Source: a bacterium (GTDB lineage: Bacteria > Elusimicrobiota > Elusimicrobia > Elusimicrobiales > UBA9959). From it: a stretch of DNA of 38,977 nucleotides. A program made the position numbers and the translations under genes. Positions 4,389-26,120 of the stretch are shown here, in pieces. Below the pieces are notes generated by a model. The model was not told the origin of the DNA. It saw only the letters and a program-made list of their open reading frames with translations, and searched no databases. The stretch's first letter is position 1, and each line of letters begins with the position of its first letter. The stretch covers positions 1 to 38,977 of the forward strand of contig JAJZOZ010000006.1 of the NCBI GenBank assembly GCA_021811405.1. The letters run 5' to 3'.

Positions 4389-4418
4389 AGTCCGATATCC
4401 GCCTGGGCCCACCGGCTA

Positions 4419-4447
4419 TTGACATTCGTCAACCTCTGCTGTATAAC
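4419..4447 (+). promoter_or_regulatory. near-consensus sigma70 promoter with a dyad over the -35 box
   Basis: TTGACA at 4419-4424, a 17-base spacer and TATAAC at 4442-4447 match the housekeeping consensus almost perfectly. The -35 box lies in an inverted repeat, TTGAC-ATTC-GTCAA (4419-4432), a possible operator. The -10 lies 34 bases before the protease ATG. The minus-strand paralogue has a similar promoter at 24593-24621. Confidence 0.75.
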
Positions 4448-4481: not shown

Positions 4482-5483
4482 ATGAAAAACCTTAATACAA
4501 CCCTGACCGCGGCCGTCGTGCTGCTGCTCCCGGCGCTCTCCTTCGCCGGCGGCAAGAGCATCTACGGGGAGGACAACCGCGTGGACTACTTCGCGGCCTC
4601 TTCCGACATGCAGACCCTTTCCAATTCCGTGGTCTCGCTGTGGAAATCCGCCTCCGTCACCTCAGAAGGCGGCGCGATGAAGCTGACGACGATGAACTTC
4701 GGCGACAGGCTCAACCTCTGCCCCGATGAGAAGTTCCGCGAGCAGCCCATAGGCGCCTTCTGCTCGGGCTCCCTGGTCGGTCCCGACCTGGTGATGACCG
4801 CCGGCCACTGCATCAAGACCGAGGCCCAGTGCAAGGACACCAAGTTCGTCTTCGGCTACAAGGTCGGCCGCGCGGGCGGCGACGCCGCTACCTCCATACC
4901 CGCCGGCGACGTGTACGGCTGCGGCAAGATAGTCAAGCGCTTCCTCGGCGGCGAGCCCGGCTCCACTAATCCCGCTGGCCAGAGCCTCGGCCCCGACTTC
5001 GCGCTGGTGCAGCTCGACCGCCGCGTGACCGGGCACACCCCGCTGCCCATCGACCGCTCCGACAGCCTCCGCAAGGGAGACTCCATCTTCGTGATCGGCC
5101 ACCCCGTGGGCCTGCCGCTCAAGGTAGCCGGCGGCGCCACCGTGCGCGACTACTCCAAGGTGGGGTACTTCGTGGCCGACCTCGACACCTTCGGCGGCAA
5201 CTCCGGCTCTCCCGTCTTCAACGCCCGCAGCAAGAAGATAGTGGGCATCCTGGTCCGCGGCGACACGGACTTCACGCAGAGCCCCGCCGGCTGCACCACG
5301 ATGGCTACCTACGAGCAGACCGGCGGCCGCGGCGAGGACGTCACCAAGGTCTCCGCCCTCTCCTCCAGCATACCGAGGCTGGCCGGCGAGAAGGCGGCCG
5401 AGCCCCAGGAGACCATGTCGGCGGCCGCCCCGGACGTGAGCGAGCCCTCGGCTGTCACCTCCAAGGTCATCTCCTTCGAATAG
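4482..5483 (+). CDS. secreted V8/glutamyl-endopeptidase-like serine protease
   Basis: Trypsin-fold (PA clan, S1B-like) protease of 333 residues with an N-terminal Sec signal peptide (MKNLNTTLTA..., hydrophobic core, cleavage near SFAGG). The triad is visible: His109 in VMTAGHC, Asp172 in PDFALVQLD and Ser241 in GGNSGSPVF. An IGHPVGLPLK segment is typical of V8/HtrA-like proteases that lack the eukaryotic disulfide pattern. A proline/serine-rich tail of about 70 residues follows the catalytic domain. I chose ATG 4482 over 4461 because GGAGG at 4473-4477 is correctly spaced and the signal peptide then begins properly. It has its own promoter and terminator, so it is monocistronic. A close paralogue lies at 23448-24434. 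Cleavage specificity is not evident. Confidence 0.88.
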   Translation: MKNLNTTLTAAVVLLLPALSFAGGKSIYGEDNRVDYFAASSDMQTLSNSVVSLWKSASVTSEGGAMKLTTMNFGDRLNLCPDEKFREQPIGAFCSGSLVGPDLVMTAGHCIKTEAQCKDTKFVFGYKVGRAGGDAATSIPAGDVYGCGKIVKRFLGGEPGSTNPAGQSLGPDFALVQLDRRVTGHTPLPIDRSDSLRKGDSIFVIGHPVGLPLKVAGGATVRDYSKVGYFVADLDTFGGNSGSPVFNARSKKIVGILVRGDTDFTQSPAGCTTMATYEQTGGRGEDVTKVSALSSSIPRLAGEKAAEPQETMSAAAPDVSEPSAVTSKVISFE

Positions 5484-22041: not shown

Positions 22042-22563
22042 ATGACGACGAACGCCTTTCACTCCCGCATAGCCGGCCTTCTCGCCGAAGGCCGGTCCTT
22101 CTGCTGCGCCACCGTGGTCTCGTCCCGGTTCCCCGGCCTTCCGGCCGGGGCGAAGGCGCTGATCTTCTCCGATGGCGGGACTGAAGCGGCCGGCTGGCCG
22201 GAAGAGCCTCTGCTGGCGCTGCGCGCGCCGGCCATGGAGACGCTGCGGCGGCGTCTTGCCCGCTCGGTGGAGGTCCTGTCCGGCGTCCGCGTCTTCTTCG
22301 ACGCGCTCGGCCCCGCGGCGGAACTGATAGTCTGCGGCGAGAGGCGGGCGAAAAGCGCCGCCCTGCGCCGCCTGCTGCGCGGCGGGGGGCCGGAACTTCT
22401 GGAGATAAGCCTCGCCGACGACTTCGGCAATAAGGGCGGCGACGTCTGCGGGGGCACTATAACGGTCTTCGTGGAGCCCGCCGGAGTCGCAAAACGCCGT
22501 CCGGAAATAAAGGTCCCCGCGGGGCCGAGGCCGCAGCCACAGTCTCGGCACCCGCGGGGTTGA
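22042..22563 (+). CDS. short XdhC/CoxI-like protein
   Basis: 173 residues. The opening IAGLLAEGRSFCCATVVSSRFPGLPAGAKALIFSDGG resembles the XdhC/CoxI N-terminal motif (LLAEGR...ATVV...PGAKMLV..DG), and GGDVCGGTITVFVEPAG matches its later M-x-CGG-x-x-x-V-F-x-EP segment. XdhC proteins help insert sulfurated molybdenum cofactor into xanthine-dehydrogenase-type enzymes. The usual GGGCxE stretch is not present (EAAGWPEE instead) and no Rossmann domain follows, so it is a short or divergent member. No molybdoenzyme gene is in the window. Only a weak ribosome binding site precedes ATG 22042. The last codons lie in a strong hairpin (22515-22559). Convergent with the trypsin gene. Confidence 0.6.
   Translation: MTTNAFHSRIAGLLAEGRSFCCATVVSSRFPGLPAGAKALIFSDGGTEAAGWPEEPLLALRAPAMETLRRRLARSVEVLSGVRVFFDALGPAAELIVCGERRAKSAALRRLLRGGGPELLEISLADDFGNKGGDVCGGTITVFVEPAGVAKRRPEIKVPAGPRPQPQSRHPRG
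22515..22559. terminator. 15-bp stem hairpin shared by converging genes
   Basis: CCCCGCGGG-GCCGAG (22515-22529) pairs with CTCGGC-A-CCCGCGGGG (22544-22559), one bulged A, 14-base loop. It overlaps the end of the XdhC-like frame and lies 35 bases past the trypsin stop. On the minus strand ACCTTTATTT follows, so it probably ends the protease transcript. Confidence 0.55.
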
Positions 22564-22593
22564 TCTGTTCGCACGCCGGCCACGCCGCCGGGA

Positions 22594-23412
22594 TTATTTC
22601 GCCGTCTCCTCTATCCAGCCCAGCACGGAACTCACCTTCGAGTAGACGCCGTATTTGTCCGGCCTGGCGCAGCCCTGTCCCCAGCTGACCACGCCAGCCA
22701 ATACGCGCCCGCTCCCCGAGCCGGCCAGCAGCGGCCCCCCGCTGTCGCCCTGGCAGGAGTCCTTGCCGCCTTCCGGCAGCCCGGCGCAGAGCATGCGGTC
22801 GGTGATGCTGCCGGGATAAGAAGCGGAGCAGGCCTCAGCCGGGACCAGCGGCACCGTGACTTTCCTCAGAACGTTCGGGATCTCGCCGTTCTCCTCGGTA
22901 TAGCCCCAGCCGGCCGTGACCAGAGGGGTTCCGGCCGCCAGCTCGGCCCGATTCAGTGATATCGGGGGATACTTGGAAGGGCTCTTCAGGTGTACAAGCG
23001 CGAAGTCATAGTCCTGCGGCCGCGTATCGTACTCCGGATGCGCAATTACTTCCCCAGCTTCCAGTTTTTCCGCCTCCCCGGGCTGGCTCTGGTCGTAAAG
23101 ACCGGCCACCACGGTTTTTATGCCGCCGCGCATACAGTGGGCGGCGGTCAGCACCCAGTCGGGCTTTATCAGCGAGCCGCCGCAGAAATGACTGCCCCAG
23201 CTCTGCAGCGAAACTATGAACGGGAACTCTCCCTTGCCGGCCTCCGTGCCGCCTACTATCTTCTCCGACGCGAACGCCGACGGGACCGGTACGCTGGGGG
23301 AAAGGACGGACCCCAGGTCCTTCTTTCCCAGCGAATTCAATTCGGCCGCGGCGCCGGCGGCAACGCATAACGGCAGCAGCGCGAGCGCCGCAAGTATCCT
23401 GGCAGTTTTCAT
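22594..23412 (-). CDS. secreted trypsin-type serine protease, zymogen form
   Basis: Chymotrypsin/trypsin family S1A, 272 residues, with a signal peptide (MKTARILAALALLPLCVAAGAAA). A propeptide of about 28 residues ends S-E-K51 before the mature N terminus I52-V-G-G, so activation by a Lys-specific cut is expected. Triad: His92 (LTAAHC), Asp136 (YDFALVHL), Ser224 (GDSGGP). Asp218, six residues before Ser224, equals Asp189 of trypsin, and SWGQGCARPDKYGVYSKV keeps the glycines of the S1 pocket, so cleavage after Arg/Lys is predicted. Six cysteines fit disulfides 42-58, 168-182 and 191-220. ATG 23412 is chosen over 23451 because GGAGG precedes it by 8 bases. It follows the V8-like gene by 35 bases in one transcript. 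Confidence 0.92.
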   Translation of the reverse strand: MKTARILAALALLPLCVAAGAAAELNSLGKKDLGSVLSPSVPVPSAFASEKIVGGTEAGKGEFPFIVSLQSWGSHFCGGSLIKPDWVLTAAHCMRGGIKTVVAGLYDQSQPGEAEKLEAGEVIAHPEYDTRPQDYDFALVHLKSPSKYPPISLNRAELAAGTPLVTAGWGYTEENGEIPNVLRKVTVPLVPAEACSASYPGSITDRMLCAGLPEGGKDSCQGDSGGPLLAGSGSGRVLAGVVSWGQGCARPDKYGVYSKVSSVLGWIEETAK

Positions 23413-23447
23413 TTTTCGTTCCTCCTGAAGCATTAAGTTCCTTAAGT

Positions 23448-24434
23448 TCATTTCGACATCGCTCCTGAAAGTGTCCGGAGCAGAGCCTGCGCTCTTTCCG
23501 GCTCCTCGGGCGCGACAGCCGGGGCCGGCAGCGGCACGACTTCTCCGTTCGCGGCCGCCGCGGGTATAGCGCCGGCCAGAGCAGAAACCTTCGTCACGTC
23601 CTCCCCGCGCCCGCCGTCCGAGGGGACCACGTTGGAGACGCGGCAGCCGTCCCGGTAGACGAAGTCGTTCTCTCCGCGGACCAGGATGCCCTCTATCTGT
23701 CCGGTCCTCGCGCTGAAGACAGGCGAGCCGGAATTCCCGCCGTAGGTGTCCAGGTTGGCCACGAAATAGCCGTCCGGGGAAGGATCCCGCACGGTAGCCC
23801 CGCCTGCCACCTTCACCGGCAGTCCGGACGGGTGGCCGACGACGAACATCGGGTCGCCCTTGGCCGGCCCCGCGCCGCGGTTTATCCCCAGCGGCTGGCG
23901 TCCTTCAGCCGGACGGTCCAGCCTCACCAGGGCGAAATCAGGCCCCAGAGCGCCGTAGCTCTCGTTCAGATAGCGCTTCACTATGGTCTTGCAGGAATAG
24001 ACGTCGCGCGAAGCCGCGCCTGAAGGCGCGTCGCCAGCGCTCTTCAGCGCGAACCCGAAGACGAACTTCGTCCCGGAACAATCCTCTTCGCTCCTTATAC
24101 AGTGGCCGGCCGTCATTACCAGGTCCGGCCCCACAAGCGATCCGGAACAGAAGGCACCTATAGGCTGCTCGCGGAAAGGCTCGTCCTGGCACAGCCCCAT
24201 GGACTCTCCGTAATTCTCGGTGGAAAGCCTGAAGCCGCCGGCGGCCGGCGTAACCTCGGAAGCGCGCCAGAGCGACACCACGGAATCCGCCAGTTTCCGC
24301 ATGTCCGGGGCCGCCTGGAAATAATCCAGCCTGTCGTCGACGCCGTAGATCACTTTGTCGCCGGCGGTCTTTTGCGCCGCCGCCGCGGGCAGGGCCGAGG
24401 CCGGCAGCAGCAGCGCGATCAGCAGTTTCTTCAT
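23448..24434 (-). CDS. secreted V8-like serine protease, paralogue of the gene at 4482-5483
   Basis: 328 residues with a signal peptide (MKKLLIALLLPASALPAAAA). His111 in VMTAGHC, Asp166 in PDFALVRLD and Ser235 in GGNSGSPVF form the triad. Long stretches are nearly identical in pattern to the plus-strand protease: FREQPIGAFCSGSLVGPDLVMTAGHCI, KVAGGATVRD and GRGEDVTKVSALA. A Pro/Ala-rich tail of about 60 residues follows. AAAGGAGA precedes the ATG. A promoter at 24593-24621 and a structured leader at 24501-24584 lie upstream, and the trypsin gene follows. Both products are probably exported, perhaps to digest protein outside the cell. Whether this enzyme activates the trypsin zymogen is unknown. 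Confidence 0.88.
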   Translation of the reverse strand: MKKLLIALLLPASALPAAAAQKTAGDKVIYGVDDRLDYFQAAPDMRKLADSVVSLWRASEVTPAAGGFRLSTENYGESMGLCQDEPFREQPIGAFCSGSLVGPDLVMTAGHCIRSEEDCSGTKFVFGFALKSAGDAPSGAASRDVYSCKTIVKRYLNESYGALGPDFALVRLDRPAEGRQPLGINRGAGPAKGDPMFVVGHPSGLPVKVAGGATVRDPSPDGYFVANLDTYGGNSGSPVFSARTGQIEGILVRGENDFVYRDGCRVSNVVPSDGGRGEDVTKVSALAGAIPAAAANGEVVPLPAPAVAPEEPERAQALLRTLSGAMSK

Positions 24435-24500
24435 ACTCGGGTATCTCCTTTAGGGAAAGCGGGATCTTTGCGGCCGCCGCGCCTGCGACACCGGCGGCGG

Positions 24501-24584
24501 AAAAAAATAGCGCCTCAACCTCGCTCTTCCCGCCTCTCACCCTTTCCGGGGTAACGTCCGGGAAGCCGCATAAGGTCGGCGCTA
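24501..24584 (-). ncRNA. structured 5' leader with nested helices and U tract (candidate attenuator)
   Basis: On the minus-strand transcript three nested helices can be drawn. P1 is TAGCGCC (24584-24578) with GGCGCTA (24514-24508), extended by GACC/GGTT. P2 is CTTCCCG (24565-24559) with CGGGAAG (24532-24526). P3 is TTACCC (24554-24549) with GGGTGA (24542-24537), closing a CGGAAA loop. Seven U residues (24507-24501) follow P1 at once. The leader begins close to the predicted transcription start and lies 67 bases before the protease ATG. Closing P1 would make a terminator, so it may control read-through. It does not match a riboswitch class I can recall. Confidence 0.5.
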
Positions 24585-24592
24585 ACGAAAAA

Positions 24593-24621
24593 AGTATACG
24601 GAAGAACTTGACAGATGTCAT
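24593..24621 (-). promoter_or_regulatory. sigma70 promoter of the minus-strand protease pair
   Basis: Read on the minus strand: ATGACA (24621-24616), a 17-base spacer and TATACT (24598-24593). A dyad, ATGAC-ATCT-GTCAA, covers the -35 box, as in the promoter at 4419-4447. Confidence 0.65.
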
Positions 24622-24637
24622 GGGCCTTAAGGCCCAT
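24608..24637. repeat. tandem dyads: TTGAC-N4-GTCAT followed by an 18-bp perfect palindrome
   Basis: TGACAGATGTCA is a small inverted repeat, and ATGGGCCTTAAGGCCCAT (24620-24637) is a perfect palindrome. The pair resembles the segment at 32139-32166. It overlaps the -35 region of the protease promoter, so an operator role is possible. The rest of 24638-24770 shows no gene or strong signal. Confidence 0.5.
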
Positions 24638-24777
24638 AGTTCGCCTAGGCATTTAAGTCCGCCCCCGGAAGCGGAGCGGAGATCGTACGATGCCAGAATG
24701 CCGTCTCGGTGTCCCGCCGCGCAGGACCACGCTGAGCAGGAGACGCCGCGTATTCGCTCCGGAACGGCTTAAATTTA

Positions 24778-24783
24778 TATAAT
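24778..24783 (+). promoter_or_regulatory. TATAAT -10 box in an AT-rich patch
   Basis: A consensus TATAAT lies in a 25-base AT-rich run (about 24768-24792) that stands out from the GC-rich surroundings, 67 bases before the metal-binding protein gene. No good -35 box is visible at 16-18 bases. Confidence 0.45.
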
Positions 24784-24850
24784 TTAATTATGGCTGCCGT
24801 TGAGCGACCACGGCCGGACCTGAATTCTGACGTAGCCAAGGAGAGTTCCG

Positions 24851-25453
24851 ATGAAAAATATCCTCATATCGGCGGCGGTTATCCTGGCCCTCGGGGCCGC
24901 GGCGGTCCGCGCGGGCGACTGCCCGATGGGCGGCAAGGGCGTCCAGCAGAAACAGGCCGCGGCCAAACACAAGTGCGACGACTGCGCCATGCACAAGCAG
25001 GCCGGCGCCAAGAAATGCGGCGGCATGACCTGCCCCGAGAAGCTCGACGGCGCCAAGACCTCCGCGAAGAACATCGGGAACGGCGTGGAAATAACCGTGA
25101 CCTCCTCCAGCCCCGAAGTGGCCGAACATATCCAGGAACTGGCCCTCGTCCATTACAGCCCTCATGCCGAAAAGTGCCAGGACTGCCCCACCGCCGTGCC
25201 CGGGGCCAAGACCGAAGTGCAGAACACCTCCGACGGCATCAAGGTAACGGTAACCGGCAAGGACCCCGCCACGGTCCGCAAGATACAGGAGGCCTCGGCC
25301 AAGGAACACCCGGCCGCGGCCGAAAAGCCCGCGGCAAAGGGCGCGAAAAAGGTAGCGATGGCCCATAAGTACGCCTGCCCGATGGGCTGCGCTGAGTCCG
25401 ACAAACCGGGCAAGTGCCCCAAGTGCGGCATGCAGATGAAGGAGAAGATCTGA
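24851..25453 (+). CDS. secreted Cys/His-rich metal-binding protein with duplicated central domain
   Basis: 200 residues with a signal peptide (MKNILISAAVILALGAAAVRAG). The mature N terminus has a Cys/Met/His cluster: C24-P-M, C42-x2-C45-AMH, C56 and C61. Two 42-residue repeats follow without gaps, residues 67-108 and 118-159, sharing GAKT...N...G...TVT...P...IQE...AEK (16 identities). The C terminus is a heavy-metal-binding motif, Y-A-C176-P-M-G-C180...KPGKC189-PKC192-GM. AAGGAG precedes the ATG. It stops 1 base before the Crp/Fnr gene, so the two are co-transcribed. Likely an envelope metal-binding protein; the metal and the role of the repeats are unknown. Confidence 0.75.
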   Translation: MKNILISAAVILALGAAAVRAGDCPMGGKGVQQKQAAAKHKCDDCAMHKQAGAKKCGGMTCPEKLDGAKTSAKNIGNGVEITVTSSSPEVAEHIQELALVHYSPHAEKCQDCPTAVPGAKTEVQNTSDGIKVTVTGKDPATVRKIQEASAKEHPAAAEKPAAKGAKKVAMAHKYACPMGCAESDKPGKCPKCGMQMKEKI

Positions 25454-25454
25454 C

Positions 25455-26120
25455 ATGGTCACGGGCATACTCAAGCAGGTATCCTTCTTCAGCGGCCTCG
25501 GCTCGGCCGACCTCAACAAGGTCCTCTCCATCGCAGGGGTCAAGAAGTACACGGCCGGCCAGATGGTCTTCGCCAAGCAGGACCTCGGCAACAACTTCTT
25601 CATCGTGAAGTCCGGCCGCATCAAGATCTTCACGACCGTAGGCGGCAAGCGCAAGATCTTCGCCTTCCTGAAGAAGGGGGAGTTCTTCGGCGAGATGTCG
25701 CTGCTGGGCGGCCGGGTCCGCTCCGCCTCGGCGCAGGCCGTGGCCGACAGCGAGCTCTTCGTGATCTCCAAGAAGAACTTCCGGCGCCTGCTCTGCGAGA
25801 ACCCGGAGTTCTCGCTGAAGCTGCTGCAGACGCTCGCCGAGCGCCTTTCCAAGGCCAACAGGGACGTCGAGTCCATGCTGTTCCATAATATCCTCGGCCG
25901 CCTGGCGGAGGCCATCCTGGACCTCTCCCGCGACACGCGCGCCAAGCCGGTCAAGATGGCCATAGACCAGAACGAGCTGGCGCAGTACCTGGGCACCACC
26001 CGCGTCCCCGTCTGCCGCGCCATCAACACCCTCAAGCGCAGCGGCATCATAGACTACCGCCGCGGCGAACTGGTCATCCTGAACCAGGCCAGGCTCAAGT
26101 CCATGGCCGGGGAAGCCTGA
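25455..26120 (+). CDS. Crp/Fnr-family transcriptional regulator
   Basis: 221 residues, usual family length. Residues about 10-120 form a cyclic-nucleotide-binding-type beta-roll (VKKYTAGQMVFAKQDLGNNFFIVKSGRIKIFTTVGGKRKIFAFLKKGEFFGEMSLLGG), then a dimer helix and a C-terminal winged helix-turn-helix (MAIDQNELAQYLGTTRVPVCRAINTLKRSGIIDYRRGELVIL). The GEFFGEMSLL segment is the usual phosphate-binding cassette position, but the arginine that contacts cAMP cannot be assigned with certainty. No FNR-type N-terminal Cys cluster is present, so it is not an iron-sulfur oxygen sensor of that kind. Coupling to a metal-binding protein gene suggests metal or redox control, which is inference. Its stop overlaps the hisS start by one base (TGATG). 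Confidence 0.9.
   Translation: MVTGILKQVSFFSGLGSADLNKVLSIAGVKKYTAGQMVFAKQDLGNNFFIVKSGRIKIFTTVGGKRKIFAFLKKGEFFGEMSLLGGRVRSASAQAVADSELFVISKKNFRRLLCENPEFSLKLLQTLAERLSKANRDVESMLFHNILGRLAEAILDLSRDTRAKPVKMAIDQNELAQYLGTTRVPVCRAINTLKRSGIIDYRRGELVILNQARLKSMAGEA

What the first reader, a model, noticed from the sequence alone, without database searches (positions are those of the whole stretch)
24501..24621. Nested three-helix leader with a U tract in front of a secreted-protease operon
Directly downstream of a good minus-strand promoter, the transcript can fold into P1 (7 bp plus extension), P2 (7 bp) and P3 (6 bp), and P1 is followed at once by seven U residues. The helices nest without conflict. This is the architecture of a regulated terminator, and I cannot match it to a riboswitch class I know. 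The signal and ligand are unknown, and the structure could also be a long constitutive terminator with read-through. Helices and U tract are seen directly; the function is inferred.
Basis: partly seen in the sequence, partly recalled or inferred. Interest (0 to 1): 0.65.

Follow-up and report, generated by a model that had tools for sequence, protein, structure and literature searches.

The report
Conserved leader of secreted-enzyme genes
The RNA hairpin with a U tract is real, but it is the window's altered copy of a promoter-plus-leader cassette that sits in front of several secreted-enzyme genes in one genus (placed in Elusimicrobiota); its terminator-like half matches the start of a protease gene that the nearest relatives still have at this spot.

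Summary
Minus-strand 24584-24508 folds into the nested hairpin described (-42.2 kcal/mol for the first 82 nt; 0 of 300 shuffles as stable), followed at once by seven U (24507-24501), and starts at the predicted +1 (24586) of a sigma70-like promoter. Ten further copies of the promoter and first ~22 transcribed bases (GTTAGCGCCGACCTTATGCGGC) were found in seven related genomes, each before a predicted secreted hydrolase (subtilase, trypsin, PAD-type deiminase, endonuclease I). In two relatives the same helix and U7 exist, but the 3' arm and U tract are codons 4-13 of a subtilase signal peptide; in the window that gene is absent and its start and ribosome site are degraded. Rfam finds nothing; nothing points to a ligand. 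Best reading: a genus-level promoter/5'-UTR cassette for secreted hydrolases, here in a rearranged copy whose hairpin may terminate or stabilise the transcript. The promoter belongs to a wider class before exported-protein genes, also in a probable E. minutum genome.

The parts
24621..24636 (-). 16-bp palindrome TGGGCCTTAAGGCCCA, predicted operator centred near -43 and abutting the -35 hexamer
   Evidence: Sequence; conserved in 10 aligned cassettes and in the broad promoter alignment A2; window hit R2 E=1.2e-8
24609..24620 (-). TGACATCTGTCA palindrome overlapping the -35 (family consensus TTGA-N6-TCAA, FNR-box-like in letters only)
24593..24621 (-). sigma70-like promoter ATGACA-17-TATACT
   Evidence: 10 of 12; -10 kept as TAnACT/TAAAAT in 10 cassettes
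24565..24586 (-). conserved 5' RNA element GTTAGCGCCGACCTTATGCGGC (+1 to +22)
   Evidence: Found with 0-3 mismatches in 6 of 32 genus genomes; aligned in A1
24565..24580 (-). hairpin A, GCCG-ACCUUAUG-CGGC (24580-24577 with 24568-24565), mutually exclusive with P1
   Evidence: Paired in all 7 distinct sequences, 2 of 4 pairs changed on both sides, 3/500 shuffles; first structure of the growing transcript
24501..24507 (-). U7 tract directly after P1
   Evidence: matches signal-peptide codons of the subtilase in G017
24501..24521 (-). relic similar to codons 4-13 of the relatives' S8 subtilase (AGGTTG--AGGCGCTATTTTTTT); reading frame broken
   Evidence: Local alignment score 33, best of 500 shuffles 26
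23448..24434 (-). first gene of the operon: secreted S1-type protease (Trypsin_2), 70-71% identical to the orthologues in G017 and G019
22594..23451 (-). second gene: secreted trypsin (PF00089)

Best explanation
The feature is one copy of a genus-level regulatory cassette for secreted hydrolases: an operator palindrome, a sigma70-type promoter, and a transcript that begins with the conserved element GUUAGCGCCGACCUUAUGCGGC. Shown from sequence: the cassette occurs before subtilase, trypsin, deiminase and endonuclease genes; in the closest relatives the base of the long helix pairs the 5' end of the mRNA with the start of the subtilase coding region. Inferred: the nascent RNA first forms hairpin A; once about 70-80 nt are made, the 5' end re-pairs with the start of the coding region, closing the initiation region, and a ribosome at the start codon would prevent this. 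In the window the subtilase gene has been lost between leader and trypsin-like gene, leaving the helix and former signal-peptide codons as a terminator-shaped relic; it would lower or insulate transcription of the protease operon, or only stabilise the RNA's 5' end.
For: Cassette copies and their genes. 3' arm and U7 match subtilase codons. Gene order in G017 and G019: subtilase then the orthologue of the window's first protease; the window goes straight to that protease. G000 keeps two other S8 genes (60-61% identity), neither with the element. Fold significant in the window, G017, G019a and G026c, weak in G019b, absent in the other leaders tested. Hairpin A covariation; change from hairpin A to long hairpin in the growing-chain fold.
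Against: Only 11 cassette copies, several close kin. P1 and P2 pair counts do not beat column shuffles, and own 5' ends pair no better with own than with other leaders' downstream regions overall (p 0.30). Sequence conservation of +1 to +22 could be a DNA site. Loss of the subtilase is parsimony from few genomes. The +1 and all transcription are predicted.
Confidence: 0.55

Rival explanations
1. A working attenuator in this copy: the long hairpin plus U7 stops most transcripts at about 24501, giving a short RNA of about 86 nt, and read-through expresses the proteases; control may come from translation, an RNA-binding protein or another signal.
For: Hairpin directly followed by U7, rare in the window; very stable; the same basal helix plus U7 in G017 and G019a.
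Against: U tract missing in G019b and G026c, and the helix missing in the other leaders; hairpin much longer than the one canonical terminator of the window (span 77 against 23).
Confidence: 0.25
2. The conserved +1 to +22 stretch is a DNA site (downstream operator or initially transcribed sequence preference), and RNA folding is incidental.
For: The element is conserved by sequence where no long fold exists; upstream neighbours are clear DNA elements; many broad-class promoters start with GTNAG.
Against: Two-sided changes that keep hairpin A.
Confidence: 0.3
3. A new ligand-binding riboswitch.
For: Conserved sequence with alternative pairings before related genes; no Rfam match.
Against: Core of only ~22 nt with one short stem; no conserved expression platform; the genes are diverse secreted hydrolases, not a metabolic pathway.
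Confidence: 0.04

Closest known systems
Intrinsic-terminator attenuators in 5' leaders (general class, from own knowledge)
   Same: GC-rich helix directly followed by a U tract between promoter and gene
   Different: The 3' arm and U tract appear to derive from coding sequence, are not conserved among cassette copies, and no antiterminator is conserved apart from hairpin A
Leaders that pair with the start of the coding region to control translation (general class, from own knowledge)
   Same: In the subtilase and endonuclease copies the 5' end pairs with early codons just past the initiation site
   Different: Trypsin and deiminase copies do not show a significant long pairing; in the window the coding region itself is gone
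2'-dG-II riboswitch (RF03165)
   Same: Occurs behind the same broad promoter class, before an exported protein, in sister genomes
   Different: No match in the window leader at gathering score; different sequence and structure

Membership tests
Intrinsic-terminator attenuator | GC-rich helix followed at once by a U tract in the 5' leader | tested here: met
   P1 24584-24508 and U7 24507-24501
Intrinsic-terminator attenuator | helix plus U tract conserved in homologous leaders | tested here: not met
   Only the window, G017 and G019a of 11 copies
Intrinsic-terminator attenuator | premature RNA 3' ends that respond to a signal | not testable with these tools
   No RNA data
Riboswitch of a known class | match to an Rfam model at gathering score | tested here: not met
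   relaxed search gave only chance-level matches away from the hairpin
Structured RNA element in general | pairs kept through changes on both sides in relatives | tested here: inconclusive
   Hairpin A 2 of 4 pairs, 3/500 shuffles; P1 1 of 8 pairs, 94/500; P2 not above shuffles
FNR-type promoter | TTGAT-N4-ATCAA box bound by a Crp/Fnr regulator | tested here: inconclusive
   Letters fit in several relatives but the box lies on the -35, not at the usual activator position; regulator not identified

The most novel reading that the evidence does not exclude
A phylum-wide promoter class (AAGGnCCTA-N7-ATAGGCCTTTTGGCCC-TTGA-N6-TCAA-N8-GTAAACT) runs much of the exported proteome of Elusimicrobiota, and one genus has added to it a 5' RNA switch in which the mRNA's first 20 nt either form a local hairpin or pair with the signal-peptide codons of secreted hydrolases, tying transcription to translation initiation.
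Probability: 0.15. Interest if true: 0.7.

Novelty: new member of a known kind. Interest (0 to 1): 0.4.

Why it matters
It turns a single odd hairpin into a testable cassette: ten related copies, a predicted start site, and a rearranged copy suggesting how a terminator-shaped leader can arise from leftover coding sequence. The wider promoter class could give a handle on how a mostly uncultured phylum controls its secreted enzymes; I found no description of it in the paper library searched.

Tried and rejected
Known riboswitch or Rfam family: no match. Multi-copy repeat in the own genome: single copy. General coadaptation of 5' and 3' arms across all copies: not supported (swap test p 0.30). 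Whole-cassette RNA including the upstream palindromes: rejected because the conserved -35/-10 and nearly constant 17-nt spacing explain them as promoter DNA. Genome-wide scan for the element outside the genus: only two chance hits. Papers on Elusimicrobiota promoters, regulons or riboswitches: none found whose listing describes this (titles and abstracts only were looked at).

Full report
Observation. The minus strand from 24586 reads GTTAGCGCCGACCTTATGCGGCTTCCCGGACGTTACCCCGGAAAGGGTGAGAGGCGGGAAGAGCGAGGTTGAGGCGCTATTTTTTT. The narrower interval was chosen after folding, so its z is flattered. The promoter ATGACA-17-TATACT is the only sigma70-like match in 22300-25500. A stem of at least 7 pairs followed by six or more T occurs twice in the window against 0.3 in shuffled windows.

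Relatives. The window is a contig of a 2.8-Mb, 234-contig assembly. The DNA from 24634 to 24555 matches other genomes of the genus, and the first 22 transcribed bases recur with up to 3 mismatches in 6 of 32 genus genomes, the own one included. A sequence model of 122 positions (R1) finds 11 strong matches in the family, counting the window, one of them in another genus (E 5.5e-13; all others E < 1e-18; ten of the 11 built the model), then a long tail of matches to the promoter half only. A scan of 84,980 species' genomes for the exact element gives only contigs already seen plus two chance hits inside unrelated sequence. Named records among the hits are MAGs, one labelled Elusimicrobiales; a genome of the same order is one contig of 1,643,562 bases, which from memory is the size of Elusimicrobium minutum Pei191 (identification inferred).

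Genes behind the cassette. They encode S8 subtilases (G017, G019 twice), trypsins (G026, G006, G027, G080), PAD-type deiminases (G018, G026) and an endonuclease I (G026) (the Pfam search was run on one of each kind, the rest assigned by similarity of the translations). All have N-termini that look like signal peptides. In the window the genes are two trypsin-type proteases.

What the 3' arm is. In G017 and G019a the leader continues ...AGGAGGAAGTT GTG AAA ACT ATA AGG TTG TTC GGC GCT ATT TTT TTA... (G017; G019a has GTT for ATT), so the partner of the 5' end, and the U7, are codons of the subtilase signal peptide. The window's AGGTTG--AGGCGCTATTTTTTT aligns to that stretch (score 33; best of 500 shuffles 26), while the Shine-Dalgarno and GTG are no longer recognisable and the frame is shifted by 2 nt. 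The downstream protease gene is orthologous (70-71% identity) and in both relatives lies behind the subtilase. The likeliest history is loss of the subtilase in the window's lineage; with so few genomes the reverse order is not excluded. The own genome has two other complete S8 genes without the element.

Structure across copies. The long pairing is significant by shuffling in the window, G017 and G019a and moderately in G026c (z -5.1, -4.1, -3.3, -2.3), weak in G019b (-1.4), and absent (z near 0) in the trypsin and deiminase copies tested. In G026c, a different gene, the 5' arm GCACCGA pairs with UCGGUGC, a two-sided change from GCGCCGA/UCGGCGC. Counts for P1 and P2 do not beat column shuffles (94/500 and 167-291/500), and a swap test over nine copies is not significant. 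Hairpin A, formed by +7..+10 and +19..+22, is paired in all 7 distinct sequences with two pairs changed on both sides (3/500); it uses bases of P1, so the two cannot coexist. One further copy (G080) was left out of that count because its helix lies in another register. In the growing window transcript hairpin A is in the minimum-energy fold from 25 to 60 nt and is replaced from about 70 nt.

Promoter class. Aligning 34 promoters gives AAGGnCCTA-N7-ATAGGCCTTTTGGCCC-TTGA-N6-TCAA-N8-GTAAACT. A model of it (R2) has 25, 27 and 42 matches at E<=0.3 in the own genome, G018 and the probable E. minutum genome, some of them reverse-strand matches at the same palindromes. Directly downstream, 18 of 19 naively called genes have signal-like N-termini against 13 of 43 other ORFs in the same loci (Fisher p 3e-6); an earlier looser caller gave 29 of 44. 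The test leans on a hydrophobicity rule of mine, on hits that include promoters used to build the model, and on nearest-gene calls, so it is a strong lead rather than a proof.

Judgement. The regulated-terminator and riboswitch reading is not carried by the relatives. The best account is a cassette of operator, promoter and short 5' RNA element, with long pairing into the coding start in one subgroup, and a relic of that pairing in the window that happens to look like, and may act as, a terminator.

Noticed in passing
window 4390-4446 (+): The broad promoter class also lies in front of the window's other S1 protease (4512-5447, +), R2 E=0.0037.
   Followed up: partly
L109, L111, L112, L114, L117, L118, L123, L125: The same promoter class drives a leader shared by all eight, mostly seen before an exported protein of about 330 aa; the two scanned with Rfam (L111, L112) match the 2'-dG-II riboswitch at 79.6 and 83.6 bits, and most of the leaders carry a stretch complementary to the Shine-Dalgarno.
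   Followed up: partly
L107 1450-1549 (-), L108 1450-1549 (-): A TTGACA-N6-TCAA-like promoter followed by a probable small RNA with a C-rich loop (CCUCCCUCACCCUACCCCCC) and a terminator-like end, in two genera of the family; no Rfam match.
   Followed up: no
window 25455-26120 (+): A Crp/Fnr-family regulator gene lies one gene beyond the divergent neighbour of the protease operon; whether it binds the TTGA-N6-TCAA site is unknown.
   Followed up: no
window 33162 (+): Canonical intrinsic terminator (9-bp stem AACCGCCGG/CCGGCGGTT, then T7), a useful yardstick for terminators in this genome.
   Followed up: no
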